In this document: positions 1 to 46,225 of the stretch, piece by piece
Layout: every line of letters begins with the position of its first letter
Position numbering within the stretch: position 1 is the stretch's first letter
Assembly: GCF_000003605.2 (NCBI RefSeq)
Contig: NW_003140815.1
Span: 292,886-344,828, forward strand
DNA: 51,943 bases
Source of the DNA: Saccoglossus kowalevskii
Taxonomy: Eukaryota; Hemichordata; Enteropneusta; Harrimaniidae
Reading direction: 5' to 3'
Position numbers and translations under genes: made by a program
Notes under the pieces: generated by a model
Database searches by the model: none
The model's input: only the letters and a program-made list of their open reading frames with translations
Told to the model about the DNA's origin: nothing

Positions 1-7102
<7,102 letters not shown>

Positions 7103-16440: not shown

Positions 16441-19331
16441 GGATGGTTGTTGAGAGTCCCCTGAACAGTGTAACAAGATCACCCCCGCATGTGAAACGTA
16501 TATAAATTTTGTTGTTCGGGATTACTTATAGGTTATTTTCTCGCATGTATTTTCACCGGCTCTTCGACCGGCATTCCACAGCAGCTCGTGCAGAGCCCAT
16601 AGAAATACATCGGACAGTGGTGCGCGTCTTGGCAACGTGGAACATCTTGTGACATAGCTCCGCTCCCGAGGATAGGATAATTGAAAATCGCTTACTTTGA
16701 AAGCATATAAATAAAGTGTGCCCTCACAGTTGACATACATAACTCAAATGATAAAACAATAGTTTTTCGTTTAAATAAAGTCTACCTTCTGGTGATTACA
16801 GAAAAAATGTGACTTTAATTAATTTTCTTACATTTCAGTTCAAACCAATCCTCCAAACAGTTTTTACCATCAAAATAACAATCACGGAAAATACTTCAAA
16901 GGTGTACTGTCTCCATCAAAATCTGCTACTCGGATATACTGGTATATATATATATATATATAAAAAAAATCACATTTAAAAAGAAAGAATATTTGGCCAT
17001 TACTTATTTTGCAATGCATGCTGGATACTTCTATTATACCGCATAGCGCATGTACGGCATGCAAATATTCCCTTAGACCAAATATGGGAGATATAGATAT
17101 TAAATAGAAACACATTTTACCCAGCATACAACATATTACTATGTACATTAAAATGACTGACAGAATATTCGACAAAAAGTGTAATCAGAGTCAAACTTTT
17201 TCTTAAAAAGCCAGAGAAATGACAGACTGTAATAGCAAACATACAAGGCATTCCCCTTCATATTGGCTTCATAATATGGTTGGGTGGTATGGGTTGGAAT
17301 CGCCATTGAAGGAAAGTCTCGTAAGTTACTTCTGATTCCTTATTTGTGCGTTAAAAATTTGCTGTCCTGCGTCAACTGACGATGCGTCATTTCATTCGTA
17401 TGGGACAGAATAACTTATAGTACTGTTATTCAAGAAGTACACTGTATTATAAAGGATTTGACACATCATAAAAAAATGGAAAAATTGGTACATAAAGAGT
17501 AAAGATTCTTGACTATAGATGTGAAAAAACATTGTAATATGTAATATAATATGTACAATAACCTTATATACTTTCTAAAAGTTAGGAAGCTAGACCCCAC
17601 TTAATATATTGAAAGATACGAGTCCCAAAACGTTATTTTTAATGAGCCAACTCAAATAATTTCCATGGTTACATCCTGTCATGCAACCAAGCAATTCATT
17701 TGATAAAACCGATCTGAATATAGTTTGAAAAAAAAATAATAATCCTGTGGGTGACCAAATTAGTTGTTCAATTATCAGAGAACGCAAATGACCTGAACAT
17801 GGCTACGCTTCCAGTCAGTGTGCTAACGTGTACACTCATCTATGCTAAACTGCCCATAGTCTCTTGATGTAAGCCAATTTTCAACATGCATGAACCAATC
17901 AGCTGTTTTAAGCATAATTTGGAATCCTGTGTCATGTGACAGATTGATTTTTTTGTCTTGCTTCCCAAGATTTTAGAAATATATTTTATTCTTTGACATC
18001 ATGATACGTTTTCAATCTTCTAATACCATACTTCATTAATATCAGAGACAGTACAACTTTAAACAAACACAAGGAGAAAGCTGCGCTAGGATTGGTTGCC
18101 AGACCTAATCACCATGACCAATCACATAAGTCCTTACACCAAATTTCATTGAAATTAGTTTCAGAACTACTTCAACTAACTAAACCTTTCACCACCATTT
18201 TCAGTTTTTGTATTCTTCCACATATAAACTAGTCCTGGTCAAATAAATACTAAACTTAATTGATCAAAATTTGAAATCTTTGTTCTGAAAAATCATAGCC
18301 ATAACATTTCCTGTTTGTTTTGAAATTAAAATAGAATTCAGAAAATATCCAGAAGACCTACATTTTTTACAGGCAACAATATGGCCAGTGAAAGAGTTAA
18401 GAATGCTGCAGTAGTTTTGAATCCAAAGTGCTGCTGTATTGTAAGTAAATGTTGTACCTTGAATCAGGCTCTAACTCGAAGAACTGGAATTTCATTGAAA
18501 CAAATTCCCTTGGATGATGTAGAGGGATTTTGAAAACCCAACTAAATATCCCTTTTTTACAACACCCCTGGTTAAAGGCAGTTCACAACAGTGAAGAAAA
18601 AAACACATAATTTCTGTTTCTCAATTGAACTCAATGTGAAGTTAAATTGTTTCTTTTAAAGCTCATTTGGAAAGCAGTTTTCAAACAGAAAACAACTGCA
18701 CTAACATCTATAACTGCCTTCAACATTCAATAGTCTAGTTTCTATGAAACTGAAATTTATCCTTGGAAGAGAAACTTTGACAAACCAGCCCCGTCATTTA
18801 GATGCTCCACACCCCACATCTCCAGAGTGGAACAACCTCACTCATACAAAAAACTCAGGGACTGCACCAACATGGAACACGCTATGGGGGAGGGAGCACA
18901 GAAGGGAGGATAAAGTACACAGAATAAACGGTTAAGATTGTAAGAGTTGATGACATACACAGCGGTCACTCACATATAGCACATATTTTACTCAAATTAT
19001 TTGTTTTTTTCATATACAAGACTTTACAGTTTGAATGTTATGTAAAATTATTGCATCTTAACCCATAAATTCTTTCAAAAGAGGAGAGCAGCTGGGTATA
19101 TATGATATATATATCTACCCAGAATTACTTTACAAATAAGTAAGTAAATAAATTAATTAAAACAAACATACAACAAAAATTAACAAGACAATGTAGTTAC
19201 AGCATGCTTGTCTTCAACTGTCTGTTGTTATGAACACACATACTGTCGGAAGGAGGGGGGATGCGTCAAAGGGATGGGAGAGGAAAGAGAACAGAGATGA
19301 AGGGAAGAATGGAGGGTTGAGAAAGTAAGCT

Positions 19332-19409
19332 TCAACCGAAGACGCCACCAAAGGTCGCAGCAATCACCACCCCGAGAATAACACAGCAGATTAGAATGAT
19401 AATTTTCTT
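19332..19409 (-). CDS. STX1: Syntaxin-1 alternative last exon, membrane anchor variant 2 (canonical)
   Basis: Acceptor GAACTCTGTAG, phase 0. Encodes 25 residues, [20 protein letters not shown] then GGVFG, and stops at TGA. This closely follows the vertebrate syntaxin-1 anchor (KKIMIIICCVxLG....GG). It lies 8 kb beyond the other last exon; using it requires skipping 27355-27438. Confidence 0.93.
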   Translation of the reverse strand, partial: KKIIILICCVILGVVIAATFGGVFG

Positions 19410-22400
19410 CTACAGAGTTCCAGTGGAATGCATGAATGTGGAAAAGAGAATACAGAAAGAGATGGTTGTTAGTTATGTGTATTTTTATAAATGTTTACCT
19501 TAAACTCCTATTACCAGTGCATCATGGGACATAATGATGTAGTAAAATACAGGCCTAGACCCCAGAGGTCACACATCCTGGTACTATCTGGGTTGGGTCA
19601 GATTCACAATCAACAGAAACTCTCAGAAACTATCACTGAAGTTCAAACATTGCAAAAATTGAAGTGTAATATTTAAAACTGTTAATATTATAGAACAATC
19701 TTCCAGAAAGTCCCAGGATGACCTTTGACCTTTAGGGATCATGATGAATATTTGGCGGACATGAACACAGAGAAAGATAATAAATAATTAACAATGCAAT
19801 AATGGCAGTTGCCATGGATTTGAAAATGTACGAAATATTATTGCGCAAGAATAAATATCAATATTGAATAAATATCAATATTGCTTCAAGCAATATCACA
19901 CGTTGTTTCCATGTGACCTCTTTATCATATGTACAACTGTAACGGCGCGAAATTCTCAACGAGCGTAAAAAGTAGCAACCAAAACCTGTGAGAGTGACAG
20001 AGAGCATGGTACGCGTTCTCCAACATGCATATTTTTTGTGGAATATGCAAATATATGATTTGAAGATTACTATTGAACATCGAGCGAGTATTTCTAAAAC
20101 TAGCGTCATCTCACAGACTCTGGTAGGTATTACATGGGCTTATACTATAAACTGACTAACACTGGCAAGGTTGCAGAAAAAAGAAAAATCTGTGGATTCA
20201 GAGTTGTGCTTTTTGTGCTGCCGTTTACCCTGGGTCAAAAATGGGGTGAATTGATCATACTTTCTCATTGTCAATGTATTTTAATGACTGCCCACATTAG
20301 TGCCAAATAATTATTGACACTCATGTGACAGAGATGATAGAAAGTGGAGCCAGTTTATTTGTGTGATTCCTTCCTTTATTATGTCAATGACATTCATAAT
20401 GCATTTTTTTAGCACAAAAATGATGGTCCGCCATCTTGAATCAGATTCACCATGTTAGCAATGTGGCTCTGAAAACAGGATTTGTTAAAAATAAAATGGC
20501 CACAAGTCAGCCATTTTGAATCAAATCTGGGGAAAAAAATGATGTGCATCAATTATGTTTAAAGGACATACCAAGTTAGAATGAAATATGCCCATACATG
20601 ACTGAGATCCAGTTCTGGAAATGCTTGATTTTGATGAATTTTAGCACTAAAATGGCTGCCATTTGGTCATCTTGAATTGGATCATGAAACAAATACATGT
20701 GCATATGTATGATATGATGTGTGTGTGTGTGAAGTTTGAATGTGATAGGTCAAAGATGTTAGATTTAGACCCTGGAACTGCATTTGTTAAAACAATTCAA
20801 TCTGCAAACAAAAAAATTGTGCATCAAAAACACAATGGTCAATGGACATACCAAGTTTGATTTGAAATCTGTCCATACATTACTGAGATCCAGTTCCAGA
20901 ATGGCAGAAATGCATGATTTTGACGAATTTTTAGCACTAAAATGGCCAACATCCGGCCATCTTTAAGTGAATCATGAAACAAATGCATGTGCCTATGTAT
21001 AATATGATGCGTGTGTGTGCAAAATTTTGAACTGAAATGTAAGAAATGAGTCAGGCATGACTGAGACCCAGGTGCAGATGGACATTATAAGTCCCCGTTT
21101 TCAGCCTGTCTACATACATTCTTAATATTCATACAAGACTGTATTAGGTGGAATTGTGCACCAAAACACCAACTTTCTCATGTGCAGAAAATGCACTATA
21201 AATTCAAATAGAGAGGCCAGTAACACACAAAATAACGTTAGAGACAAGACACTGATTGGATTTTACACTTTTGAATTACATCGCTCAATATTTAAGTGTT
21301 TCGGTGTTGAGATACCCTTACTTCATCAAAATAGACCATAATCAAATGATTTCATTCATAACATGGTGGGCTTATATGTGGGTGTCACCGGGAATTCAGG
21401 CAGATTTTGCCATGACCTACATCATACATAAAATCAACCCAGAAATTAATCACAGCTTGCTGCCCAGTCCCAGATATAAATAAACGACAATGGAGAATTA
21501 AACAGCTTATAAGGAATTTACAAGTGTAGATCATATGCTGCCATCTTGTGACTAAATCCCTGTATGAATGGCCGAAGAAATCATTTGTTTTTTATCAGAC
21601 CTTTTTTCAGGCCTTTTTATCTGGTTTCTGCTAAAATATAAAATTATTATAAAAATATTATTTCAATCATACCGTAAACATTTCATACAAATAAAGACAA
21701 AACCTCAACGAATATATATTTCAGGTAGTTTTATTCACCATAAGACTGAAGTCCAAAAGCCTCAACACTATGAACACCACAATTTTCCACCAAAACATAA
21801 CACATAATTATGTATTGGTCTGTCATATTTTTTTAAATTTTGAACCAAGTTTACATAATTTACCATTTATTCAAGGTCCAGATTATAATCGTTGAAAAAG
21901 CTTTAGAAAAAATTAGGCTGGTTTATTTTGCAAAAGCTAACAACTCTTGATTGTGGTATTCATAGGTTTAAGAAATGGACAAGTAATCTAACACCCTTTT
22001 CTCTATTGCAAAATAATACCATGTGTTCTTATAGTAACCAGGAAAAGAAATTATTCTCTGAGAAAGTCTTTTTTTTACCAATGGTTGATGATAGAGGAAT
22101 AACTACCAGTAGTCAGAAATAGGAAAAAAAACAATAAAATGGCAGTGCCAAATATATTAGCAAAAGACATAAATAAAACTAAATCAACTAAAAATTGCGT
22201 GAAATGGACTATTTTACATATACACAGTTTAAGTACATAATAATAATAAATACAGAAAGTCAAGCTATATTGAGAGGAAATTAAATTTGTTTTTATAAAT
22301 ATCACCAGATTTCCGTCAATTTAGATTTTCCAAATCTGGCTGCATGCTCACTGTAGAATATAGATACGTTGACAAGTGTGAACAAAATGACATAAATGCA

Positions 22401-25400
22401 AACATTCATCATATTCGATTATTCAAAATGTTTCATCGCAAAATACAAATTCACAAGCGTTCGTTTGGTTTATTATTAACAGTAACTCAAATTACAGTAG
22501 TCATGTCAGTAGTGCATTTCCCACTTTGCATCTTATAATTTGAGTTGTCAAAAACATTCATATTTGTTTCAAAACACAGAGCAGTCTGCTATAATCACCT
22601 CGGAGTACAACATAAAGTATGCAATACAAGAAATAACATATTTAATTGTTTATCAATTTTCATCAGTTTATTGGACTATATAGATTCTGAAAGCTTTAGA
22701 ATACGAGAATATACACGTCATTTTTGAATTAGACTAAATGCCGAAAAATCTTCCAATGTAAAACTGACGAACCAGATTGCTCATAATAAACATTCACTGT
22801 ATTAGCGTCATTTATTTCGTCAAACACAAAACAATATCACTACCATGTAATTGAACTCTCAACATTTTCGAAGTTGTTTTCTTATATGCAAACTTCAAAT
22901 GAATATTACTAGACTCGTATTAAATATACCATAAAATAAGACGCACTAAACAAGTCAAGCGATAAATCTAATGTAATTTTATGCGATGACAAACGTATAC
23001 ATATCTACAAATATTGGCGGTGTCTGTGCGAATGACTTACGGTTAAATGTAAAAAACTACATAATTTATTTCTGACAATGCTTTTTTTTTTTTTAAATGA
23101 GTAATGCCATAATACAGAAGGGTAAATGTGCTTTTGAGAGAGGGCGCGTAGTAAAATACGACAGTTTTTTTAAAAAGCTTTTAATGTTGTCGTACTAGCT
23201 GGCATGTAATTTGCATAAAACAACTAGTATTTAAATTAAATACAGAAACCCATCAAAGTCACATTATTTACAAGTTCTGAAATGCCGCATGTAACATCTC
23301 TTGAAATTCAAACACGATTTTAGCGACATGAACCGACCAGTGAAAGAAGCAATGATTTATTTTATTTTCCCCCACAAATGCAGAAACAAACTTTTACAGA
23401 CAGAAACTACAATAATGCTGCACTTGTTGCGGGTTCAAATGTAGCGCCCAGGTGTGAAAAGATCGGTTCATAATCAACAATTCTAAATTTTAAAGTTCAG
23501 AGTAAGAGATAAACAAACTGAAAAAAACAGTTTGAAAACATAACCAAATAATCTTTTTCATTAGATTGAAAGAAAAAACTCCCACAGGGTAATACAACTA
23601 AACTTTTTTAGCAGAAATTCCAGTCAAATTTGAAAAATTTACTTTTCAATATGTAAATTTAAAAAAGAAATATTATTTGTCACTTTTATATCAGGAATGA
23701 ATTTTTTTTGATCAAAAATACCTATTATAATGCATTATTTGATTACCGATAAATTTGACAATAATTCGTTATTTGAAGAAATACAATATACATATCAACT
23801 GTTAAAACACATGCTACCCGCCTTCCGTAAAATATGAGTTTCTTGCATTATTCAAATGAGTTCAAAAAAGGATTTTGTTATTTAAGTAGAACAAATACTT
23901 TGAAACAGTCCACTTCGTCAACTGAGAGTGTGCCTCTGCTGATGCCGATGTAATACCACTGTGGACTTCTCTACGACTGCACGCAAGCATACACCAGTCA
24001 TAATAATAGTTATTTTAGTCAATAAATTTAAATTCATTAAGCAGTACCTAGAAAAGTAAAACAATAAATTTGTTCTCGCCAAATTCCCACACAAAAAATC
24101 GTCAATATTTACACACAAAAAACACAAATAATTACTTCCCAAACACCTCAAATCGCTATGGTAACAGGGTACTTTCTTAAACTAGCATAAACAACAATTT
24201 ATTATGATAATTAGTAACAGTAATATGCAGTTTAATAAGACTGTTACTGTTAATCAGTTGTTACACATGCAAATTTAATAATAATTGTTATGGGTCATCA
24301 TAGCGACCATATGCATTTGATTGTTTTGAAAACAAGTCATGTTATTTCGTAGCATGAAAACCATTTCAAAAGCAATATATGATCTCTTCCTTCAAACTAA
24401 CTAGTATATGCAGTATTCCTTTTGTTAGTTAGTGGGGGAAGGGATGTTACACCAAATGTAGAGTGTGGAAGGGCCATAAATCATATACCACTTTCATTCC
24501 AAACATTTGAACCCAGTGCCTCACCACATGCACCATGTACATTGGAATGGGGAAATTTTGTAGATCCAAACCATTTAATGCATGTATTCAATAAATGTCA
24601 AATGTTGAACATTTATTTTTTTGTTGTGGTATTGAATAATCTCAATACAAGCAAAAATATTTTTAAAAAAATTAAAAACATGTCATCAACATTTTTTTCA
24701 AGTTTTCCCTTGGTCGAGAAACAAAATCTTTTTTCCTTTTGGCCTTAGCTTTCAAGCAGAAATGGTAGTTCCTTACAAAACCATACAACAAATTTCAAAA
24801 TAAATGTTGCTTGCCAACACAAAAAGTTATCTTAAAGAACAAAATTAACAGAATAATAAATAAATAAATCTCCATGTGTATGGGACAGATTAGTTTGATG
24901 CCCTGAATGAAAAAAGGAAGAGGACTTTTATAGTGTTGCTAAAAGAGCACCCTCTATGGCGAACATCACCTTCCATGAATCTGCAACAGTAGCAACCGTT
25001 TTGCAAATAACATGCCAGCACCATATGATCGCTCTTATTATCAAAATTATGCCACTGAATACAACAATTCTTGAAACATTTCACGTACGTTTCGACATAA
25101 TTCTATTTACAAAAAAAAAAAATTATCATCATTTTAATATTTAAAATATAAATTCACCTAGCTATCGTGACTAATATTTTTCAAACATCAAAACTAAAAT
25201 TGCCTTTTAATTTATTATTAATAAAATAATATTTTGAAAAAAAAAAAATGAAGCTAGCAGAATTGTCTGGTGATCACTGCTTTATTTAATGATCCAACAC
25301 CCTGTTATTTCATGTTACTTCATGTGAGTCACATACGTGTACAATTCCATCTAAACAGCAAAATATTCTGTATACACATTCATGGTACTGGTCAGGTTCC

Positions 25401-28400
25401 AGTTCACTGCAAATTGTCTGTATCAACCTTTGATCAAATTCTTAAATCTTAATTTCACTAAAAAAATTTTTTTTATAATTGCAATGTCTGGATGTACCGG
25501 TAATGCTCGTTAGCCCTCTTAAACCTGGAGGGGGATCATAGGTCAATCCGAGAAGACAGATGTTGCAATAAAACTGCCAAAGGTCTATCTATGTCATTCT
25601 GAATGTTATTGCTCAGATATAGCATCTATAGTTCAAGATTTCTCATAAACATTAAGGGGCGATGATCATCACACAGCATGTCTTAAAATAGCATGTAAAC
25701 AAATAATGTGTTTTACATACATTGTGTACGTCCCTATGAATCTGATATCGAACAAGACTGTCGTGACGACACGGTGCGGTGAACACCGCCCTTTAACATA
25801 AACATCTAATCCAGGAAGGGCTTGTGACATAGCGTGAAAAACCTCCATGTGTTCCATAAAAAACGCACACATAACAGTTACGTTTATAGAACATACTGGC
25901 CAAAGTATATAGAGATGCTAATGCTGTGATAAAAAAAAATATACACAACTATTTTCTGAACCTTTACATGCTCTGATTATTCTATAAAAATAATATCTAA
26001 TACAAATAATTAATTTCTGACATTATTCATAATTTACTTCAAATTACTATGCCTTGGATTTGTTCAGTTGATTCGACTGACATCTAAATATGGACAAAGT
26101 TTGAATGGACGGGTTTGAGTGGTTGAAAAACAGTCAAAAGATTGTAAAGTGGCGATGTGTTTCTCGGTTTGTGGACGAAATCTCAACACATGTATTGTGG
26201 CATCAAATTTCTGCTGTAATATTTAGTCAAATTTATTCAATTTTATCTATAATCTAATGAAACGTTGTTTTTCCAAGAAATTGATGAGAACAGTTTACAG
26301 CACTGTTTAGATTCCAATATAAAACTGGGCCTTTAAAACAGGGATTCATGGTGGCTTTCACACAATTATGTCAAATCAGAAAATAATGAAAATCACCCCT
26401 AACACCAAATTGTAAGACATTCCTTGTGATCCCAGGTTTGTTTATTTCAAATTAAAATTTACCAAAACTTCAATATTTCTAGCAGATTTTGATGAAATGT
26501 CTTACAAGGGTGTAAATTTAATTTAATTTAATTTTGTAATATTTCAAGTTTAAGTTTTTTCATTATACTGGTAATCTATCAGGATCAACCGATGAAAGGT
26601 TTGTCACATTCACGGTGAAATGAATCATGGTCATGTGATTTGAAGCAATTTATCATATCAGAGATAAATGAAACCAAAATAACAGAAATTATAACTACCC
26701 TGCTCTGGATGAAAAATCCTTTCAGTAAAAAAAAATACATTCACAAATAATTAGCCATTTTTTATCTGAATTCCTTTCTGAAATGAACAAAACATTGGTA
26801 CCATTTGATACTTTTTGAATAGTTCAGAGGTCAAAGGTAATGTAATGAGGGTGATGCAAGGTCAGAGGTCAGAGGGCAAAGTAATTCTATAAAATGTCAG
26901 CTCCAGTGATTGGATAGTCTGATTATAATTTTATGCTAATTATATATTCCTTTAAAGGGAAACTTCAGATTGGATGAGAAAATCACATGTCAGAATGCAA
27001 AATTTAGAACCAACAAGAATGTAACAAAATATAAGCTGAAAGTCATTTGCGTCAATGAAACTTTTTCTCCATTTCCTTTGAAATTTCTACAACTTCAGAG
27101 GAAGTAGGTGCAAAGAATCCCTGAAGCAATTTTTCACAAAAGCACAAGTGCTTGACCATTTCAGAAAGGATATTACAAAATATTCACAAGAATTACATTT
27201 TTTCTGCTGGTACAACAAAGTAAACAACATATTTAAAAAAAAAATACTAATTTTGGGTTGCACAAGAAAATAAAAAAAAAAAATACCAAGACTGGAATGA
27301 AATGGTAGAGGTACACTGGACTGTTAGGACACTAAAACAAGATGGCCGCCCACATCAGTTCAAGCCAAGGCTCAGACCAATAATCAGAGCTATAACACCA
27401 AGGAGAATAATACAGCATATCACGATTAAAAACTTTTTCTGCAGATAAAAAAAGAAAAGAAAATAGAACAAATAAAATTATTTCAAATAAATATGCTCAA
27501 CGACTGTTGTCATGGAAACTAAAAACTAAGTTTTGAAACTTTTGCTCATTGGAATGAGAAAAGTGAACGAATTTTTCATCATATTTAAGCAGATATTTCA
27601 AATTTGTTACCGAACTCAAATATTTCCACTTTATATACAAGCGGACACTGAACATCATTTCTTCATGCAAGACTATTTACATCATTTGCAAGTTTCAAGA
27701 GCGAGTTTTATAATATTTTATTTAATTACATCACCAACTTAGGTTACAAATTTGTGAATGCCAAAGTCAACATTTGGGTGGGAAAATGTTAACAACGTCT
27801 GGATCATGTTTACTGGAATTTCAAATCTCAAATTTATTTGCCAAGTCATGGTATCCATATAACAAAATGGCACCTTTGATGAAGTACTCAGACTAAAATA
27901 TCATGCAAAATCTGATAATGATAATGGAAGCTAATATCACTACAAACTGATGATCTGAAGTTGTACAAAGAGACGCACACTGAACATCAAGATATTTAAA
28001 CAAGACAAACTCTGTAATGATGAGTGCAGTGAAATGTAGGACATGCTTGATAATTGAATTATGAGAGAAAGTGAAAAAAAAGGGAAAGAAAGCAATTAGG
28101 TAGGTAGGATTTTGGTGGTCAATCCATTTTTATTTAGATGCATGCACTGTGAACATTGATGCATTTAGGGACAGTACTCTTAGGTTTAATGATGCTTTGA
28201 ATTCTACACACGAAATTATAGTTCACAACACTCTTTTTCAAATGCTTTTGCAATGTGTTCCTTTACATGTCTTCACAAATATTCATTTCAGTTCAGTTCA
28301 AAATAATTTGAGACTCAGGCAAATCTGGACAAATCTTCGTACATTTTAATATTCGAGCACATATTTGTATTGTCAAACATGTCAAATATTTGCGCCAAAA

Positions 28401-31400
28401 CACCAAGAAACCTTAGTACTAGTATCACAAAATGCAATTTAAAAAAAAATACACACGTCACAGGGAGCACTTTTATTTGAGGAAGAAAGAAAAAATTGTA
28501 ACACGAATACTGATGGTAAAAAGTTGAGAAAGGTATAACATGAACGCTGTGACTTTACATCAGAGCGTAACGCTAGGAGATATCACAGGGATTAAAATTT
28601 ATATTAATTGTAAATACATTTTAATACTGACCATTTTGTATCAAATTATAAAAAATAAAATTGTACAAATGAAACATAAAGTTAACGTCTTCTCTCTGCA
28701 ATTTTCTCTGTTTGTAAAACACTACTGGTTGTGATTCTGGTTACAGGACTGAAAAATATATCCACGCCATGCCACGTGACCTTTTGTTATTTTTCTACAG
28801 CTTGATTTATACTAACAAACAGCGATCGCGTTTCCCATCTTGTAGTAAGCATCACCTCGGGTAGTCATAGCGATTGTTCATGAATATTCATGTTGTCTTT
28901 GACAGAGGATTGAGCAATGATAAGAAGAGGACAAAGGTTTCCATGCTTAAGTGTAGCATAGGTGTAGGAGTCAGAATTCCACAGTTATGGCAGTGAATTA
29001 CGATAGTGATTTGCGATTGCTTGAAACCCCAATGTTGCCACCAGAAAAGCACATTCATTAGTAAGAAAGACAGTGCGCATAATATATATATAGCAGACAG
29101 TGCTGAGTGCAGGCAGTTTTGAATCGTATATTGACGCTTGATCATTCTCTACAGAATACATAGTATTGTTATGCAAGTACAGTTGATGTTGATGAACATG
29201 GTTACTTTAAAAATGTTGACCAACATCAACATGCCAACAGCAGTTTCCAACATTGCTTAAAGCGAGAGAGTCGTCACCTGCGCATGCGTCAGATGGCCGT
29301 AGCGTGTCATTGTTTAAAAAACAAGTGTCTACAGCGTGTGTTGTTATCGTCGCTTGGGACTCAATTCCCGTGTGTGTACAGGTGACGACCATCCAGCTTT
29401 AACACACCAACAGTCATAACTCGACTGTTAACGTCTCCCAACACGATGGTATAGATGCTGACTGGCTGTGCTGGTCTCTCGCCTAATAATATGAAAATCA
29501 TACTCAACAAACTCACAACAATCAGCACATTCAACATACAATCTATATGTGCAATATCTCAACAGTTACGTGGGCAAACATTTATTGTAGCAAAGCAACA
29601 ATGTTCAAAACATGGTTATGGAAAATATTGCGCGTTTGATGTGTCAGCACTTGGACAGAAAGATGATATGTACATGTGTAAACCATCCGGCAACACCATG
29701 AATCATGGAAATGGATCAAGGATGTTATGTCACATTACAAGACTATATTTGCTGAACATGTAACATGTTTTGTAATTACAAAATACACAGCAAAAATTGT
29801 GAAAACACACTGTAGAAAATGTGGAATCGTGAGGTCTCCTGAACTGGTCATTGAAAATATGACATAAGGCTATACAGATTAGACCAATTTATAAAAGGTC
29901 TTGATTGCAGAACTAGTTTGTGACTGCAGAAATGAGTCAATTCAACCGATTTAAAATGAAACCACTTGAATTTTGACCTATCAATTGATCCCAAAAATCT
30001 ATAATACTACCCAGAATGCAACATTTTGACTTACCCTTCTTGCTTTACTTTGGTATTTGACCGCTTTCTTTGTGTCCATCTTGGCCGTCTCAACATAATC
30101 CACAGATTGTTCAACATTATATTCAATCCTATCTATCATCTCTCCCTATTAATCAAAATGAATGACAAACAATGATAACAACGACAAAACTGACAGACTC
30201 TTATCATATTAGTTGCCATAGAGCTGTATTTTTGAAAAAACAATCCGGTAAAACTCCCCATTTATCAATAAGATTTAAAAATTTATCCAAATTCAAGTTT
30301 CAACAATTTTTGAACAGTACCACAAAATAAACTAAACGTGTTTCATTCCATACATTCCATTTCCTACTGCAGATGCCCCTTTTACACTAAAAATAGTTAA
30401 TTTGAGATTCTGTCATAGATGGCGCAGTTTATACCAGGTGTTGCCACTAGGTGGCACACTTTCACCAGATTATGCCACTAGGTGGCGCTCTTTCACTAGA
30501 GTCTGCCACAAGATGGGTCGCTTTTACCAGATTCTGCCACTAGGTGGCACACTCTAACCAGAATCAACCCACTGAATGATGCTTGGTTCACAAAAATCAG
30601 TCACAAGGTATGTTCCTCGCCACCCCAGCTATTGGCGGGACAAATAACGTCAAAACATCTTACGTACTTGTTGTTCGACGAGCATCGCCATATCCATAAA
30701 CATATCGTGGAGTTCTCGGATGCTGTTTTCTAATTTGATAATGTCGTTATGTCGAGCTTCAATGTCTCCAAGTGCTTGCTTAGCTTGCTGCGTGTCCATT
30801 ATGATCTGTTAAGAAACATATGCATATTAAAAACAATAGCAAAAATCTCTTGATAAGTTAGCGCAAAATCGAATAATGGTGGCATTCAATAGAAATTGCT
30901 ACAGTCGCGGCATTACGCTGTATTCAAATTTCATGTAGTTCTCACATATTGTTTACGTCGATGTCGGTTCTATATCGAACATCGAATATCGTCACGGGAT
31001 GACAACTGCTTTAAAGTCATGAAATGACGATATTCTATTTTAACATTTTCACTAACTTTTTCATTTTTTTTCTTACAATACATGTGACAATTTTGTAGCA
31101 GGGTACTGGACTTGATTAGTGGTCTCAACATACATGTAAAATAACAATATAAAATAACTCATTGTTTCACCGATATAGTGTGAACTTAAATTCAGCGAAT
31201 ATGTAAAAAATACCAAAATACTGTAGAATACTTTATTTTTGCTATTTTCACTGAAGGAATGATTCAGTGAAAATAAAATCCAGCGAATATCCCTTTTTTT
31301 CTTATATTTCACATTCAACTCATCAAAAATCAGTTAAAATAAATTCCATACAAAACACTCGAAAAGCCTTTTCAGCGAAAATTAATTCCAGCTAAAATAT

Positions 31401-34400
31401 AGTATTTGACAGTAGTGAAATTAAATGACAGTGGCAATAAATGATTTTACAGTGTACAAAATATGTAATAACCAATTTTGGAAATCATCATGATGGCTAG
31501 TTATGCTGAATACATGTAAAAAAAATGCCATTATAGGTGAGGTTGCAATGGTTATATAAAAGCGTTCAAAGTCTGCGGCACATGCAAACACTTCTTACCC
31601 CAGATGTAAAGATCGCTGGGTTACCACTTTCCAGCATATCCTCGAGTTCATCATTTGTTGTAGTTTTACCAGCTGTAAATAAAATGGAAAGTTCATAAAT
31701 TGTAATAACAAAAAAAATAATAACAAGAACAATGGTTATTTAGTACAGCAGTCACAAATCTAACGAATAATTTTTCTTCACTGAATTAAACCGCAGTGAT
31801 CACTGTGACTGTGTACATTAAACATGGGCCCTATGCTAAAAGGAAACGTGCATGTAAACATATGGGAGTCAATTGTATTATTTATTTACTAAATTTTAAA
31901 TATACAAAGCAATAGGTAAAAAATAAATTGAATTTTAAAGGCTTGGTTCTCATATCATAGTTGATGGTACAGCCAATGCAGAGAAGAAGCAATCTTAGCA
32001 TCACCACTAGAGGGCAGTATATAAAACCAACTGTTACACAACATTGACACTGAAAATCAAATTGAGGTGGTTGAGTATCAGAATTTACAAACTTGTAAAA
32101 GGTAGGAACAAAAATGTGTTTCTTTCATCAAACCTTTTTTTTCTGTAATTTTCCTTGTAAATAATTTTTTAGAATATCCTGCCACCAAATCACACAATGC
32201 CCCCCCCCCCCCCACACATTGCAGTAGTGGAACAGCCATCAATGGCGATTCCAACAGGGTCATACCAAATGTCTTCAGTTACAAGGGGTGAGAAGGTTAC
32301 TACTCACTTATTTCCAGTTGTCTCTGTATGCGTCCTTTACACCTTTCTCTATATTCTGTTTGTGTGCCATTATATTCTGTCATTACTTCCACAAATTTAC
32401 GTGAGAGTGTGGAATGCTATGAGACAGGAATTCAAAAAAAACATTTATAATGCATCTGCCAAAAAAAATCTCTTTTCTACTTCTCGCATTGCTCTGCACA
32501 AACTCCTATCAATATGCCAGATTGTTTTGAACAGCGCCCTCTATATATTTTCACCACATCTTAAATTGACTCTCTAAGTTATTGATAATTAGTTAACAAA
32601 TTCCTCATTATGATCTTTCATATAAATTCAGTTCTCATCATATATGCTGTAATTTCCCAAGAGACAAATATTTGCAAGTCAGTGAAATCACAAAATGCAG
32701 TTAAAATTTCTCTGGGTCTTACTGATGCCGAGCAGCCAATAAGAGGTTTACAGTACTTGTACTGTATATAACAAAACATTGGGGATAACTGTAAAGTACT
32801 TTATTTTAGCTGGAATTAATTTTCGCTGAAAAGATGTTTTAGGTGTTTTGTATGGAATTTATTTTCACTGATTTTTGACTAGTTGAATGTGAAATATAGG
32901 TAAAATGGTATATTCACTGGATTTTATTTTCACTAAACCATCCCTTCAGCGAAAATGGCGAAAATTAATTCCAAGCGAAAATAAAGTATTTCACAGTAAT
33001 CTATATTTATGGCTTATTAATAGGCCACATTCATGAGTTTTAAAGGTCCTGCTGTAATATTTTCGTTGTTATGAAGATTAAAAATGATTATAGGTTATTG
33101 CAAGAGTTGGAACAAGTTAAGCATGTTATACACAAACTGAACTGTGTTTTATGTATGTATTCATTTAATTGTAGATTTCTAGAGACTCCTTTTGACGTAT
33201 TTCAACAAATCCATCACCATGTTACCAGTCACAAAATAAACCTGCATAATTTTATTCATATTTTATTATTTTATTCATATTTTTCAAAAATTCTGATCAA
33301 GAATTGTTTTTATTTGGTCTAACAACAAAACAAAATACAACAAAGTGGAACAAAATGTTGATGGGTATAAAAGTTTAAATAATGACTTTTTTAGAAATCT
33401 AGAGTAAACATTGATGAGAAAGAATTATTTCTAATGCCACTTAAATGAAATCAAAAACCATCAATGACATATTTGTCAGGATTAAATAGATTACATGGCA
33501 ACACATGGCAACACATGGCAACACATGGCAACACATGGCAACACACGTTTCTCTGTGAGATGGCAACAAGCAGATGGCACACTGAAATGTACATTTACAC
33601 TCACGATTGATAGGGTCAAATATGAATGTACCAAAAAGCTACAGGAAATTGGGTTTTGTGTGTTTTATTATAGGACATCGTGACCCTAAAAGGTCACACA
33701 TCCTGGTACTTTCAGGGAAGGGGAAATAGAAAAATTTACAATCAATGAGAATTTCTTGATTATGACGCCCCCTCCCCCTCCCAAAAATGTAAGTAGTTGA
33801 CAATGGAAATCAAAAGCAGATTAAAAATGACAAAAGTCCAATTTTCAGACAATATATCCAAGACATTACCAAGATGTGTGAATTTTAGAAGTCATGCAAA
33901 ATGCTAGAATGTGTGATCTTTTGAGGTCATGAAAAATGCCAGGATGTGTGACCTTTTGGGGTCAAACTATTGTCAATTCGAAATAATGAAAGTTTTCAAA
34001 CTAGATTTTAGAGAATACAGCTTTTTTTTTTCAACTGATGTCACTAAAGCATTGCATCATGTGATTCATTAAGAAGTTCAATTTGAACAAACAAAAATTA
34101 AATTAAATTAAATATTGACAGATGTATTTATAACTGTTGAATAGTTGAACTAATTTTTTAAAGACTTTGTTCAAGCATTAAGGGTCATTTAAATTTACAT
34201 CAAATCACCATAAATTGAAGCATGGTAACGCAGTTTGGATTTAAAATTTGAACTCTTTCACATGCTGTACCGTGTTCTATTATTACCTCAGTTTTATTTT
34301 TGATAAAGAACACAGTGAGACAAAAAAAGAATTCTTTGAAAAATATCCACAGTAAACTTGTTACTTGATGCCAGTTCAGTGTTTAGAAGTTATAAACGCA

Positions 34401-37065
34401 AGCAAAATGTATTTATCAGCAGATATAAGACCTTTCTGGCTAAAATTAGCATATTTGGTGGGAAATTAGCATATTTGGTGGGAAATTAGCATATTTGGTG
34501 GGAAATTAGCATATTTGGTGGAAAATTAGCATATTTGGTGGGAAATTAGCATATTTGGTGGGAAATTAGCATATTTGGCGGGAAATAATAACTGAGCATA
34601 AGCTTTTACTTTGATTTTCAAGATAATTAATTTTCATTTTTTTTTTCTTTTCTAAAATTCTTCTTCACAAAAAAGCTGTGGCTCACACATTTTTTTTTTT
34701 AAGTCTTAATTAGTAATCATAGGAACATTCCTTACCTGCGTTTTTCTTATTCTAATATCTGCAGATGACTTTATATCTTCCTGTTCTATACCGCTTTCAA
34801 TAACTACAAATAAACAGTAGTTACAACAATCATTATAAAATCTAGAAAAATTCTATAACCATAGCAACAGTTGAAATTAACATTAACATTACTAACTCTA
34901 AAATTAACAGCACAAACTACAACTACACACAATATTACTTATTCCTTTATATTTAACCAGGTTTTCTTCAAAGTTATGGGTGTCCTATATAAAAAGGTCA
35001 ATAACATTTATTCGTTTTCCATACATGTAACTCATAGTACCAACTGAATCCAGCAGACTTCCAGCAAATTTTGTTAATTTAAGAGAAAAATCCACATGTT
35101 TGAATGTTTGGGAACCAAAATAATTCCCGTTTTCTATTTTTGTTTTTGATTTTTATTAGAACAATATGGACATCATATTTATTATTATTTTTTATACGTT
35201 ATGTACATGTACATCATGTAGACTCTAAATTGATGATAATGTACATAAAATTGTGGAAAGAACAATAAACTCCTAAATTTTTATTTGCACTGGGTTTAAT
35301 TTATCATTCAGCTTATCAGCGAAATACTCGCAAACAAAAATAAATCCAGCTTATTTAACATAGCTTTTTACAGAAGAATATTCTATCATTATATGCAGAG
35401 TGCCCTCTAGAGGCTGCTCAATATTTTTTTTTTGTCTTTTTGCAATTTGAAACAAATCAATCAAAATTTGCAGTGTATCTAGTGTATCTAACAAAGAATG
35501 ACGCTTGTTTTACTGATTTGGATTAAATTAACAAGCACAATGTACACATGTGACAATTTGCCTTTGTATAAATGCTGAATGATGCATTGAAACAACCATA
35601 TTGTGAAGGATTGAAAAATGAAAATAGAGGCCATATGGAATTCATTATCATTTTTTTTGTCATTGTGAGGAAAATTTTGACACACCATTTGCACCAAACA
35701 TAATTTATTAAATCATTTGACAGCCACATCCTATTTTATACACGGTTACTTTATCAGCCTTATTCTTTCTAAAAATTGACAGTATATATGACATTCAAAA
35801 TCTTTTTTGAAATGGGATTATTTTGTGAAACGTGACAATAGTCGACGTATACAGGGATAATTGGAATAACATCACAAAAACATTCATATAAAACCTTGAT
35901 GGATAAACTATAATTTCAAAATATATTGAAAATACACAAAAATGCACAAATATGACACAATTTTATCTCATTTTTGAGTACCGGTACACATAATGCTATT
36001 ATTACACTCTTGTCTGGTACACATACATGCATCCACTGTCTGTCCAATTTGTTGACACCACAGACATCCATATCTGGGACCTTTAAAGGCGTTTCACATA
36101 ATTCATAATTAGTTCTTTATCTAGACACTGAAAATATATCTTAATTTATGACCTACTGTAAAGGGGGTAATTATTCACTGGGTTTTAATTTTTCTTTTCG
36201 CTGACTGGTAAATGCGCTAAATTAAAACCCAGAGAATATGTCAAATTTAGCACAGAACACATTATCTAAATGATAAAACCATGAATTTAAAACCCACTGA
36301 ATATGCCTGAATTGGTAAATCAGTGAAATTTAAACCCAGTTAAAATTAGTCATTTTATAGTACCATGAAAATTAATCACTCTTAATCACCACGATAATTT
36401 AACACTTACAGTAAAGATACCTATACGAAAAATAATCTTGAGTGGTCCATTTTAAAGGGTGGAGGTCGTCACGCAGCGTGTCTTCAAATTTCATCTAAAC
36501 AGACATTATATTTTACACGCGTTGTGTACTTTGCTATGAGTCCCATATCGAACAGGACGTGGCGCGACGACCACCGCCCTTTAATAATATTTTTGTTTGT
36601 TTGCAGAATTGTAATTTATTATGTACAATCTGTAAAGATTTAGTTTGATTAATTAAAACAGGCATGTCCCTGTTATCTGGGTGTCAAGGCAACTGTAAAT
36701 GTCAAAATCTATAATCACAATTTGACGTCACATCTATATCATGCCAAATATCGCTTGCCCAACAATAATATGTAGCAAGCAGGCAATGTCTGGCAAGTGA
36801 GCGGCTTAGAGATTTAGTGAAAATAGAACCGACGTAACCTTAGAACATTGAAGCACGTGAGCTGCAGGCATCGAGAGTTATTATTAGTTCATGTATCAGT
36901 TGAGTGGGATTCAGGATAATGCTACTTATCGTTATTATCCGAAGAACATTCCTCGTATTCAGCAACAGAAATAAACATCACTGCACATACCCTTTAATTT
37001 TCCACGAACTTTGTTTGCGGTTTTCTTGATATCTGCCATGAGTTCTTCGAGTTCTTCCTTGACTT
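19332..37065 (-). CDS. STX1: Syntaxin-1 (plasma-membrane t-SNARE), gene-level entry, 5' end missing
   Basis: Exons in transcript order: 37065-36991, 34803-34736, 32416-32308, 31672-31599, 30805-30668, 30145-30035, then one of two last exons, 27438-27355 or 19409-19332. Every junction is AG/GT and the phases agree. The ~216 codons match syntaxin-1 from the second N-terminal helix onward: Hb ([19 protein letters not shown]), Hc ([18 protein letters not shown]), linker, SNARE helix ([20 protein letters not shown], zero-layer Gln, [12 protein letters not shown]), the basic SKARRKK and a transmembrane anchor. Syntaxin-1 pairs with SNAP-25 and synaptobrevin to drive vesicle fusion. About 70 N-terminal codons (N-peptide, helix Ha) were not located. 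The SNARE part is near-identical to known animal syntaxin-1, so the family call is firm. Confidence 0.96.
19552..19745. mobile_element. Possible degenerate copy of GTGACC-type MITE
   Basis: GAGGTCACACATCCTGGTAC near 19565 matches the left end of the element at 33678, and CCAGGATGACCTTTGACCTT near 19711 resembles its right end in inverted orientation. Confidence 0.45.
20395..20966. repeat. Tandem repeat with AAAATGGCC...GGCCATCTTGAA cores
   Basis: Cores at about 20495, 20650 and 20940 are joined by shared blocks: ACATACCAAGTT, CCATACATGACTGAGATCCA, TTGATTTTGATGAATTTT and TAGCACTAAAATGGC. Spacing is about 155 and 290 bp. A single diverged copy is at 42972-43135. No TE protein is encoded. Confidence 0.7.
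25652..25796. mobile_element. TTAA-bounded MITE, family B, copy 1
   Basis: Begins TTAAGGGGCGATGATCATCA and ends GTGAACACCGCCCTTTAA. Shares CAGCATGTC / CAGCGTGTC, TATCGAACA and the CCGCCCTTTAA end with 36452-36584. No coding capacity. Confidence 0.75.
27355..27438 (-). CDS. STX1: Syntaxin-1 alternative last exon, membrane anchor variant 1
   Basis: Acceptor TTTATCTGCAG, phase 0. Encodes 27 residues and stops at [12 protein letters not shown], then [18 protein letters not shown]. It keeps KK and the ICC core of a syntaxin anchor but has a longer, more Leu/Ile-rich segment ending in LGLN. It is the proximal of two last exons, 2.6 kb after the SNARE exon. Splice signals, phase and the shared KK..ICC pattern support a true alternative exon. 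Confidence 0.85.
   Translation of the reverse strand, partial: KKFLIVICCIILLGVIALIIGLSLGLN
27439..30034 (-). other. Syntaxin intron between SNARE exon and first anchor exon
   Basis: AT-rich intron with a TTAA-bounded MITE (29257-29402). No additional anchor exon was recognised. Confidence 0.7.
29257..29402. mobile_element. TTAA-bounded MITE, family A, copy 2
   Basis: Begins TTAAAGCGAGAGAGTCGTCA and ends in GACGACCATCCAGCTTTAA. Same orientation as the copy at 12233 and nearly identical over its first ~40 bp. The middle is diverged. Confidence 0.8.
30035..30145 (-). CDS. STX1: Syntaxin-1 exon: second half of SNARE helix and basic juxtamembrane segment
   Basis: Acceptor GATTAATAG, donor AGG|GTAAGT. 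37 codons, [20 protein letters not shown] then [17 protein letters not shown]. Ends on a codon boundary, so either last exon joins in frame and adds KK to complete the polybasic RRKK stretch. Confidence 0.96.
30146..30667 (-). other. Syntaxin intron at the SNARE zero layer
   Basis: 522-bp intron splitting the SNARE helix after the zero-layer Gln. It contains the 31-bp array and otherwise plain AT-rich sequence. Confidence 0.85.
30409..30563. repeat. Five-copy 31-bp array with CTCF-like cores
   Basis: Units repeat every 31 bp (equivalent positions 30412, 30443, 30474, 30505, 30536). Cores are CATAGATGGCGC, CCACTAGGTGGCAC, CCACTAGGTGGCGC, CCACAAGATGGGTCGC and CCACTAGGTGGCAC, each followed by a TTTCACCA/TTTACCA-type spacer. 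It lies in the syntaxin intron between the two SNARE exons. The similarity to the bilaterian CTCF core is by eye. Confidence 0.75.
30668..30805 (-). CDS. STX1: Syntaxin-1 exon: first half of SNARE helix
   Basis: Acceptor CTTAACAG, donor GTACGT. 46 codons, [19 protein letters not shown] to MAMLVEQQ. The last codon is the Gln at the ionic zero layer of the SNARE bundle (Q226 in mammalian syntaxin-1A), so the intron falls exactly after the zero-layer residue. Confidence 0.96.
30878..31014. mobile_element. Diverged TTAA MITE, family B
   Basis: Shares ACGCTGTATTCAAATTTCAT with the 36452 copy (ACGCAGCGTGTCTTCAAATT), then TATATCGAACATCG, and ends CTGCTTTAAAG. The left end is too decayed to place exactly. 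Confidence 0.45.
31219..31414. mobile_element. MITE, TACTGT/ATTTTCGCTG family, copy 2
   Basis: Left end TACTGTAGAATACTTTATTT, right end AGTATTTGACAGTA; same orientation as 631-804 and alignable along its length. It sits in the syntaxin intron 30806-31598. Confidence 0.75.
31599..31672 (-). CDS. STX1: Syntaxin-1 exon: linker to SNARE motif
   Basis: Acceptor TTTACAG, donor GGG|GTAAGA. Encodes (T)[20 protein letters not shown], then FTSG. This is the conserved linker ([22 protein letters not shown]) that folds back on the Habc domain in closed syntaxin. Confidence 0.95.
31673..32307 (-). other. Syntaxin intron between the linker and Hc exons
   Basis: AT-rich intron with a C homopolymer at about 32200-32212 and one CTCF-like site at 32004-32020. 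No further element seen. Confidence 0.75.
32004..32020 (+). promoter_or_regulatory. Single CTCF-like site
   Basis: CCACTAGAGGGCAGTAT reads as a strong match to the CTCF core CCACNAGRKGGCRS known from vertebrates. It is in a syntaxin intron. No binding evidence is available. Confidence 0.4.
32308..32416 (-). CDS. STX1: Syntaxin-1 exon: helix Hc
   Basis: Acceptor CTGTCTCATAG, donor A|GTGAGT. Encodes [20 protein letters not shown], then [16 protein letters not shown] and one base A of a split Thr. It matches helix Hc almost residue for residue. The + strand reading over 32197-32577 is its antisense shadow. Confidence 0.95.
32787..32998. mobile_element. MITE, TACTGT/ATTTTCGCTG family, copy 3 (inverted)
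   Basis: Begins AACTGTAAAGTACTTTATTT and ends AATAAAGTATTTCACAGTA. Aligns to the reverse complement of the 631 and 31219 copies. It lies about 1.4 kb from copy 2, so the two face each other within one gene. Confidence 0.75.
33493..33542 (+). repeat. 10-bp minisatellite, five copies of ACATGGCAAC
   Basis: Five exact tandem copies of ACATGGCAAC. It translates as [10 protein letters not shown]... but sits in an intron on the opposite strand from the gene, so no protein is inferred. Confidence 0.9.
33678..33967. mobile_element. MITE with GTGACCCYAAAAGGTCACAC inverted ends
   Basis: Left end GTGACCCTAAAAGGTCACAC followed by ATCCTGGTA; right end TGCCAGGATGTGTGACCTTT followed by TGGGGTCA. The arms are about 33 bp and the element about 290 bp. 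The ends themselves contain a GTGACC...GGTCAC palindrome. No transposase. Confidence 0.7.
34443..34585. repeat. 20-bp minisatellite, seven copies
   Basis: Seven tandem copies of AAATTAGCATATTTGGTGGG with only two single-base variants (GGTGGA, GGCGGG). It lies in a syntaxin intron, starting about 150 nt downstream of the 34736 donor in transcript direction. Confidence 0.95.
34736..34803 (-). CDS. STX1: Syntaxin-1 exon: Hb-Hc junction
   Basis: Acceptor TTTATTTGTAG, donor GTAAGG. Encodes (V)[20 protein letters not shown] then TQ and ends on a codon boundary. SSADxRIRKTQ is diagnostic of syntaxin 1-4. A seven-copy 20-bp array sits about 150 nt downstream of the donor. Confidence 0.94.
36154..36362. 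mobile_element. TACTGTAAAG-ended inverted-repeat element
   Basis: Starts TACTGTAAAGGGGGTAATTA and ends ATTTTATAGTA; the motif ACTGGGTTTTAATTT recurs in inverted form (AAATTAAAACCCAG, AATTTAAAACCCAC). Termini resemble the TACTGT/TTTTCGCTG family but the interior differs. Confidence 0.6.
36452..36584. mobile_element. TTAA-bounded MITE, family B, copy 2
   Basis: TTAAAGGGTGGAGGTCGTCA on the left, GCGACGACCACCGCCCTTTAA on the right (final bases CTTTAA): about 20-bp inverted ends inside TTAA. Best-preserved copy of the family. Confidence 0.8.
36991..37065 (-). CDS. STX1: Syntaxin-1 exon: helix Hb
   Basis: Acceptor TATCGTTGCAG, donor G|GTATGT. Two bases complete a split codon, then [19 protein letters not shown] and RGKLK, plus one base G. 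This is the conserved [19 protein letters not shown] block of helix Hb in the autoinhibitory Habc domain. It is the most 5' exon recognised and lies about 350 bp from the N run. Confidence 0.95.
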
Positions 37066-41761: not shown

Positions 41762-42516
41762 CCCCAAAGATGTTTTATTTCCAGTGAATTAAATCTGACA
41801 TATAATCAGTAAATTTACATAATCCTAACAAGATTGGCATCTGATTATAATGTGATTAAATCATGCAACGACTTTGTTACTTGGTAAATAAATGAGTAGA
41901 AATACATAATGCTTTCCCATACGATTTGGAGGACACACTATTTCAAAACTACAATCAAGTGTTTCTTTTATCAAAGTTAAAGTTTATGCATACACAAACA
42001 AACTGTAATATAAAGACCACAAAAAGAGAAACAGTTTGTAGTCAATTCTGTTTTCCAAAATCTAAATATATTTTTTATTCTAAAACTGTCATTAAATGTT
42101 TGATTTTTTTTTCATTATTTCTAAAATTACCAGTATGTAGAAAACAAGGAAGCTGTGACACCCATGATGAAAAAATATCAATATTTGTTTTCTGGCCAAA
42201 AAAGTTTCCATAAAATTTGAGTATTAATACATAATATTTACTATTTGTAATAACCTGTGATACACATGCGTGTCTAGCTACAGATTTTATAATTTTATTC
42301 CTGGAATGTACGAGGAATGTGTCACATTTTGTTTTACAAAAATTTCAAATCTGTAACTGTGATAATTATTATTATTATACATCTGTCACCGTATCTCCAT
42401 AATTTACAGCGTACCACAATTTTGTGGTAATGCACAGGTTACCTAATTAGTGAATGAAATTCAAAGCGTGGAAGTTTCAATAATTGTTGGCATCTTCCAC
42501 AGTTCTGGGCTTTATA

Positions 42517-42852
42517 CAATGAACGCTTAGCTGACTTATACAATGAACGCTTAGCTGACTTATACAATGAACGCTTAGCTGACTTATACAATGAACGCTT
42601 AGCTGACTTATACAATGAACGCTTAGCTGACTTATACAATGAACACTTAGCTGACTTATACAATGAACGCTTAGCTGACTTATACAATGAACACTTAGCT
42701 GACTTATACAATGAACGCTTAGCTGACTTATACAATGAACGCTTAGCTGACTTATACAATGAACACTTAGCTGACTTATACAATGAACGCTTAGCTGACT
42801 TATACAATGAACGCTTAGCTGACTTATACAATGAACGCTTAGATGACTGGTT
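42517..42852. repeat. 24-bp minisatellite, 14 copies
   Basis: Unit CAATGAACGCTTAGCTGACT + TATA, 24 bp, fourteen copies. Copies 6, 8 and 11 carry GAACAC instead of GAACGC. Because 24 is a multiple of 3, two - strand frames stay open (SLYKSAKR and SVHCISQL repeats), which is an arithmetic effect and not evidence of a protein. Confidence 0.95.
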
Positions 42853-45654: not shown

Positions 45655-46225
45655 GTGAAAAGGCCCCGATGATGAATAATAGGCCTAGCACTAACACTGA
45701 GAAGGGATACGGTAATATGCCTAGAACTTACAATGAAAAGGCCCTGATGATGAATAATATGCCTAGCACTAATACAGAGAGGGCCCTGATGATGAATAAT
45801 ATGTCTAGCACTAACACAGAGAGGGCCCTGATGATGAATAATATGCCTAGTACTAACACAGAGAGGGCCCTGATGATGAATAATATGCCTAGTACATGTA
45901 CTAACACAGAGAGGGCCCTGATGATGAATAATATGCCTAGTACTAACACAGAGAGGGCCCTGATGATGAATAATATGCCTAGTACTAACACAGAGAGGGC
46001 CCTGATGATGAATAATATGACAAGCACTAACACAGAGAGGGCCCTGATGATGAATAATATGCCAAGCACTAACACAGAGAGGGCCCTGACGTTGAATGAC
46101 AATATATATCTGTGATAACACTGGTAGGGCCACTGTGCACTTCAACATGTCTAATCAATGCTGAGGGCCCTAAAACAAGGGTGAATAATATCCCCTTGTA
46201 ATAACAATGAGAGGGCCCTGATGCT
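45655..46225. repeat. 42-bp minisatellite, about ten copies
   Basis: Unit GAGGGCCCTGATGATGAATA + ATATGCCTAGTACTAACACAGA, 42 bp. Copies get more diverged toward both ends, and one has a 6-bp insertion (about 45895-45900). The 14-codon unit keeps three frames open (MMNNMPSTNTERAL on +; two on -), again through length alone. Confidence 0.93.

What the first reader, a model, noticed from the sequence alone, without database searches (positions are those of the whole stretch)
19332..30145. Syntaxin-1 gene with two mutually exclusive membrane-anchor exons
The SNARE exon ends on a codon boundary after SKARR, and two downstream exons (27438-27355 and 19409-19332) each begin with KK, have good acceptors, and encode a complete transmembrane segment and stop. 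One is the classical syntaxin-1 anchor; the other is longer and Leu/Ile-rich, ending LGLN. Alternative 3' ends of syntaxin-1-type genes are known in some animals; whether this pair corresponds to those is inference. A swap of anchor would change membrane targeting or fusion-pore behaviour while leaving the SNARE helix constant.
Basis: partly seen in the sequence, partly recalled or inferred. Interest (0 to 1): 0.72.

Follow-up and report, generated by a model that had tools for sequence, protein, structure and literature searches.

The report
Syntaxin-1 gene with alternative membrane anchors
A nerve-type membrane-fusion gene carries two alternative final exons, each encoding a different membrane anchor; such switches are known in related animal genes, so this is an ordinary but clean new example.

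Summary
The minus strand carries a syntaxin-1 gene with GT-AG introns throughout the model; its common part is 76.6% identical to rat syntaxin-1A. Exons 1-3 lie beyond the window. Exon 9 ends on a codon boundary after SKARR. Two downstream exons, 10A (27438-27355) and 10B (19409-19332), each complete the protein with KK, a transmembrane segment and a stop, giving 290 and 288 residues. In a scan of 131.9 kb they are the only minus-strand hits of that kind. 10B is the syntaxin-1A anchor (18 of 25 identical). 10A is a mosaic: its inner half is syntaxin-1-like with CC, its outer half is closest to human STX3A (11 of 14) and STX2 isoform 1 (recalled sequences). Best reading: tandem alternative last exons, as in C. 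elegans unc-64 8a/8b, STX2 and STX3A/3B, so a new member of a known kind. Use of either exon, tissue pattern and conservation could not be tested. A CELF-type site was not supported, and poly(A) hexamers are too common here to count. The most interesting open reading is that this pair of anchor types predates the vertebrate syntaxin duplications.

The parts
36991..37065 (-). syntaxin-1 coding exon 4
   Evidence: GT-AG, in frame; tblastn match to syntaxin-1A
34736..34803 (-). syntaxin-1 coding exon 5
   Evidence: GT-AG, in frame; tblastn
32308..32416 (-). syntaxin-1 coding exon 6
   Evidence: GT-AG, in frame; tblastn
31599..31672 (-). syntaxin-1 coding exon 7
   Evidence: GT-AG, in frame; tblastn
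30668..30805 (-). syntaxin-1 coding exon 8, first half of the SNARE helix
   Evidence: GT-AG, in frame; tblastn
30035..30145 (-). syntaxin-1 coding exon 9, second half of the SNARE helix, ending SKARR in phase 0
   Evidence: Pfam SNARE E 7.9e-20 when followed by 10A and 5.3e-21 when followed by 10B
27355..27438 (-). alternative last exon 10A: anchor [27 protein letters not shown] and stop
   Evidence: inner half nearest STX1A, outer half nearest recalled STX3A
26232..26532 (-). stretch with four ATTAAA/AATAAA hexamers starting 822-1117 nt after the 10A stop, possible poly(A) signals
   Evidence: hexamer match only; such hexamers occur about 2.9 per kb on this strand, so they prove nothing
19332..19409 (-). 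alternative last exon 10B: anchor [25 protein letters not shown] and stop (syntaxin-1A type)
   Evidence: 18 of 25 identical to the syntaxin-1A anchor of PDB 2m8r
17985..17990 (-). AATAAA hexamer 1341 nt after the 10B stop, possible poly(A) signal
   Evidence: hexamer match only; expected by chance at this density

Best explanation
This is a syntaxin-1 gene with two tandem alternative last exons. The pre-mRNA is spliced from exon 9 either to 10A, with its own 3' end, or past it to 10B, about 8 kb further on. The SNARE helix and the KARRKK juxtamembrane segment stay the same and only the membrane anchor changes. Shown: a complete gene model, both open frames, both acceptors, and the syntaxin-1 identity of the common part. 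Inferred: that both exons are used; that each has its own poly(A) site; that the pyrimidine-rich, near 10A acceptor is the default and 10B needs 10A to be passed over; and that 10B serves presynaptic release while 10A serves other secretory or plasma-membrane domains, by analogy with STX3B versus STX3A. Both anchors keep KARRKK and the two cysteines, so both could be palmitoylated as STX1A is; the likely functional difference lies in the outer half, where 10A is of STX3A type. 10A has 25 residues after KK with 7 Leu, 10B 23 with 2 Leu.
For: Gene model with GT-AG at every intron and two open frames of 290 and 288 aa. Match to syntaxin-1A E 3.8e-121; Pfam Syntaxin and SNARE. The scan for anchor-type last exons finds only 10A and 10B on the gene's strand. 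10B versus rat STX1A anchor: 18 of 25 identical, 0 of 2000 shuffles as good. 10A versus recalled STX3A: 15 identical, score 84, 0 of 2000 shuffles; versus recalled STX2 isoform 1: 13 identical, 0 of 2000; 10B versus STX3A is near chance, 299 of 2000. Outer half of 10A: 11 of 14 identical to STX3A, 9 to STX2 isoform 1, 7 to STX1B, 5 to STX1A. Precedents: unc-64 8a/8b and STX2, STX3A/3B, STX3B anchor two residues from STX1A's. Residue counts.
Against: No transcript evidence for either junction. No relative of this genome could be compared. The STX1B, STX2 and STX3A anchors are recalled, not fetched. 10A also resembles STX1B (14 identical, score 70) and STX1A (13 identical, score 60), each with 0 of 2000 shuffles as good, so it could be a changed copy of 10B. 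In C. elegans the near exon (8a) is the neuronal one, opposite to the order assumed here. Strict UNC-75/CELF motifs are absent from the 10A-10B intron. Poly(A) hexamers are no more than chance would give.
Confidence: 0.8

Rival explanations
1. 10A is a decaying or unused exon copy: an old duplicate of 10B that still reads open but is not spliced in.
For: 10A and 10B are alike (13 identical residues, 0 of 2000 shuffles as good); the inner half of 10A is STX1-like (8 of 13); no RNA evidence exists.
Against: The frame is intact over 27 codons. Its acceptor has the most pyrimidines of the gene's ten. Its outer half is nearest recalled STX3A, 11 of 14, against 5 of 14 to STX1A, which decay would not be expected to produce.
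Confidence: 0.1
2. The pair is used, but the anchor type has little effect: the choice mainly swaps 3' untranslated regions, so the switch controls mRNA stability or localisation.
For: Two last exons must bring different 3' UTRs. Both anchors keep KARRKK and CC. Either UNC-64 isoform rescued axon regrowth of an unc-64 mutant.
Against: Only UNC-64A rescued locomotion of unc-75 mutants in that study, though the same paper reports that Norris 2014 found only UNC-64B rescued unc-64 locomotion; either way the isoforms differed. STX3A given STX1A's juxtamembrane and transmembrane region regained synchronous release.
Confidence: 0.2

Closest known systems
C. elegans unc-64 (syntaxin-1), alternative last exons 8a and 8b
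   Same: Syntaxin-1 gene; two tandem last exons encoding different membrane anchors; tissue-specific use, with an UNC-75/CELF site between them promoting 8a (PMC4946901, passages).
   Different: [quoted passage not shown] here they are 27 and 25 codons from KK and differ in both halves. Strict UNC-75 motifs are absent from the intron here. The one UNC-64 anchor that I recalled matches neither exon.
Vertebrate STX3A / STX3B
   Same: One gene with two anchors, one nearly identical to the STX1A anchor (STX3B) and one of the STX3A type. 10B and the outer half of 10A match these two types (STX3A recalled).
   Different: In STX3 the switch covers exons 9-10, so the second half of the SNARE helix changes too; here only one exon-9 match was found. 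Cysteines had to be added to the STX3A anchor; 10A has CC and an STX1-like inner half.
Vertebrate STX2 (epimorphin) isoforms
   Same: Two isoforms differing in the membrane anchor, with a CELF2 site upstream; recalled isoform 1 is near 10A in the outer half (9 identical).
   Different: Paralogue, 64.2% identical in the common part against 76.6% for STX1A (STX2 recalled). Recalled isoform 2 has an outer half that matches neither 10A nor 10B (2 identical each).

Membership tests
syntaxin-1 (Qa SNARE of the plasma membrane) | N-terminal Habc domain | tested here: met
   Pfam Syntaxin PF00804 E 1.4e-40
syntaxin-1 (Qa SNARE of the plasma membrane) | SNARE motif with the central glutamine | tested here: met
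   Pfam SNARE PF05739; the Q before GEMIDR is kept (its role as 0-layer residue is recalled)
syntaxin-1 (Qa SNARE of the plasma membrane) | closer to syntaxin-1 than to syntaxins 2 and 3 | tested here: met
   76.6% to rat STX1A, 75.2% to fly Syx1A, 64.2% to STX2, 64.5% to STX3 (references typed, rat STX1A agreeing with the PDB alignments, the others from recall only)
syntaxin-1 (Qa SNARE of the plasma membrane) | KARRKK juxtamembrane segment and CC in the anchor | tested here: met
   present in both isoforms; the roles of KARRKK and the cysteines are from PMC9183232
tandem alternative anchor exons (unc-64 8a/8b type) | two last exons in the same phase, each with anchor and stop | tested here: met
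tandem alternative anchor exons (unc-64 8a/8b type) | both exons spliced into mRNA | not testable with these tools
   no RNA data
tandem alternative anchor exons (unc-64 8a/8b type) | CELF/UNC-75 site in the intron between them | tested here: inconclusive
   0 matches to T[GA]TTGTG, [GT]TGTTGTG or TGTGTGTG; 13 loose UG hexamers against a mean of 4.7, but 8.6% of 232 overlapping control intervals have as many
STX3A/STX3B-type switch | alternative exon 9 as well as exon 10 | tested here: not met
   tblastn with syntaxin-1A and Syx1A finds one exon 9 in the window and none in the flanks L004-L011 (top hits only were listed)

The most novel reading that the evidence does not exclude
The two anchor types are older than the vertebrate duplications: one ancestral secretory syntaxin gene carried both an STX1-type and an STX3A-type anchor exon as a splice choice. 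This animal still holds both in one syntaxin-1 gene; vertebrates kept both in STX3 (3B and 3A) and one in STX1. The neuronal versus epithelial division of syntaxins would then have begun as a splice choice, and 10A, with an STX1-like inner half and CC but an STX3A-like outer half, would show an early state. Odds lowered from 0.45 to 0.4 on re-checking, because STX2 isoform 2 does not fit the STX1 type and 10A is a mosaic.
Probability: 0.4. Interest if true: 0.55.

Novelty: new member of a known kind. Interest (0 to 1): 0.36.

Why it matters
It gives an intact one-gene case in which the SNARE helix is held constant and only the anchor changes. That is a natural experiment for asking what the anchor itself does in fusion and targeting. 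If the pair is ancestral, it would also help explain why vertebrate STX3 makes two anchor forms, one of them nearly the STX1A anchor.

Tried and rejected
CELF regulation: loose UG hexamers first looked enriched in the 10A-10B intron (17 in 7945 nt against 0.82 per kb). That pattern list double-counted overlapping hits. With a plain list the count was 13, and 8.6% of 232 overlapping control intervals had as many; the strict published motifs gave 0. Rejected as evidence.

Poly(A) hexamers: AATAAA and ATTAAA together occur 150 times on the window's minus strand, about 2.9 per kb, so those after 10A and 10B are not evidence.

STX2 as a second holder of both anchor types: dropped, since recalled isoform 2 matches neither 10A nor 10B in the outer half (2 identical each).

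Relatives: the search for related loci with exons 8-9 found nothing in viral contigs (10 stretches matched a pattern, none confirmed) or genome contigs (19 stretches, none confirmed). The phage collection gave no match to exon 9. Rfam gave no match in the window at gathering scores. PDB search with the 10A anchor alone gave only the syntaxin-1A anchor, at E 2.1.

Literature: among the papers listed by searches, I saw none on an invertebrate syntaxin-1 pair of these two anchor types. Searches listed only 15 of 23, 12 of 93, 10 of 135 and 8 of 86 papers, and only openly licensed papers are held. A search for five anchor peptides as text gave 0 papers.

Species: not identified. The taxonomy lookup was a guess that led nowhere.

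Full report
Check of the observation. Exon 9 (30145-30035) reads [37 protein letters not shown] and ends in phase 0 at a GTAAGT donor. 10A (27438-27355) follows a pyrimidine-rich tract ending CAG and reads [31 protein letters not shown]. 10B (19409-19332) follows a weaker tract ending TAG and reads [29 protein letters not shown].

The gene. The window lies in contig C3164 of a 572-Mb genome. tblastn found exons 4-9 in the window and exons 2 and 3 upstream in L006; exon 1 was found by pattern in the joined sequence. Exons 1-3 lie at window-frame positions 70802-70773, 70640-70557 and 70258-70159, outside the window. The model has GT-AG at every intron and gives 290 aa with 10A and 288 aa with 10B. 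The 10B form matches PDB syntaxin-1A over residues 1-266 at E 3.8e-121 ('rat' is recalled) and Pfam Syntaxin and SNARE. The common part is 76.6% identical to rat STX1A (200 of 261), against 64.2% to STX2 and 64.5% to STX3, the last two from recall. It is a syntaxin-1.

Chance. I scanned 131,943 bases on both strands for an acceptor followed in phase 0 by 20-45 codons, at least two K/R in the first four residues, a 19-residue stretch of hydropathy at least 2.2, and a stop. There were three hits: 10A (3.42), 10B (3.01) and one on the plus strand (2.31). The thresholds were chosen after the exons were known, so this describes rarity rather than giving a clean test.

What the anchors are. 10B is the classical anchor: 18 of 25 residues identical to STX1A of PDB 2m8r, 0 of 2000 shuffles as good. 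10A scores best with recalled human STX3A (84; 15 identical) and has its highest z-score with recalled STX2 isoform 1 (13 identical), 0 of 2000 shuffles for each; but STX1B (70; 14 identical) and STX1A (60; 13 identical) also beat every shuffle. 10B against STX3A is near chance (299 of 2000). 10A and 10B share 13 residues. The one recalled UNC-64 anchor matches neither (all). Split into halves, 10A is a mosaic: its inner 13 residues have 8 identities with STX1A and 4 with STX3A, while its outer 14 have 11 with STX3A, 9 with STX2 isoform 1, 7 with STX1B and 5 with STX1A. 10B is nearest STX1A in both halves (11 and 7). The PDB alone could not confirm the STX3A likeness. 10A has 25 residues after KK with 7 Leu; 10B has 23 with 2 Leu.

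Mechanism. Each exon has its own stop, so the two anchors exclude each other in the protein. Hexamers of poly(A) type follow both but at a density of 2.9 per kb on this strand they are expected anyway. The 10A acceptor has the most pyrimidines of the gene's ten (18 of 20); 10B has 12 of 20 and the fewest T (6), while exon 8 has 11 of 20. The simplest model is a near, strong last exon and a far, weaker one reached when the first is passed over. Which tissue does which is inference. The STX3A/3B analogy makes 10B the neuronal form. The C. elegans order, where the near exon 8a is neuronal, argues the other way. The CELF-site test did not decide it: 0 strict motifs, and 13 loose hexamers that 8.6% of 232 control intervals equal or exceed.

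Known context. PMC4946901 (abstract, outline and passages seen) describes unc-64 exons 8a and 8b, which encode different anchors, with UNC-75 promoting 8a through the intron between them; it also says STX2 makes two anchor isoforms, and that another study disagreed on which UNC-64 isoform rescues locomotion. PMC11476516 (abstract and passages) describes STX3A and STX3B, sharing exons 1-8 and differing in exons 9-10. PMC9183232 (abstract and passages) says the STX3B anchor differs from STX1A's by two residues, that cysteines were added to the STX3A anchor by the authors, and that STX3A and STX4 distribution depends on anchor length. PMC2639358 (passages) says the rise of vertebrates expanded the secretory SNARE set. 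PMC1555595 and PMC1156879 gave only reference-list entries. Saifee 1998, Ogawa 1998, Norris 2014, Quinones 1999 and Curtis 2008 were not read.

Verdict. A complete and well-placed pair of alternative anchor exons in a syntaxin-1 gene, a new member of a known kind, with use of the exons still to be shown. What lifts it a little above routine is that 10B and the outer half of 10A match the two anchor types that vertebrate STX3 makes as 3B and 3A, which suggests an old pair. That needs genomes I could not search.

Noticed in passing
161-3673, + strand: Exons of a P-type cation ATPase, SERCA-like by eye (name recalled). The last one (to 3673) matches Pfam Cation_ATPase_C at E 6.9e-4, below its curated cut-off, and holds a donor-like GATG|GTAAAC (GT at 3593-3594), where an alternative short C-terminus could be spliced, as recalled for SERCA2a/2b.
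   Followed up: partly
42512-42848 and 45662-46097: Minisatellites whose units are multiples of three: 24-nt unit x14 and 42-nt unit x10.4, with long open frames through them, in the 33-kb intron between syntaxin exons 3 and 4.
   Followed up: no
L001 and L003: The other two of three SNARE matches in the same genome (a lower bound), with SNARE and anchor-like stretches that look like syntaxin-5-type and syntaxin-16-type by eye (names recalled).
   Followed up: no
34803-34736: Exon 5 lacks two residues relative to rat syntaxin-1A and fly Syx1A ([10 protein letters not shown]); recalled human STX3 also appears shorter here.
   Followed up: no
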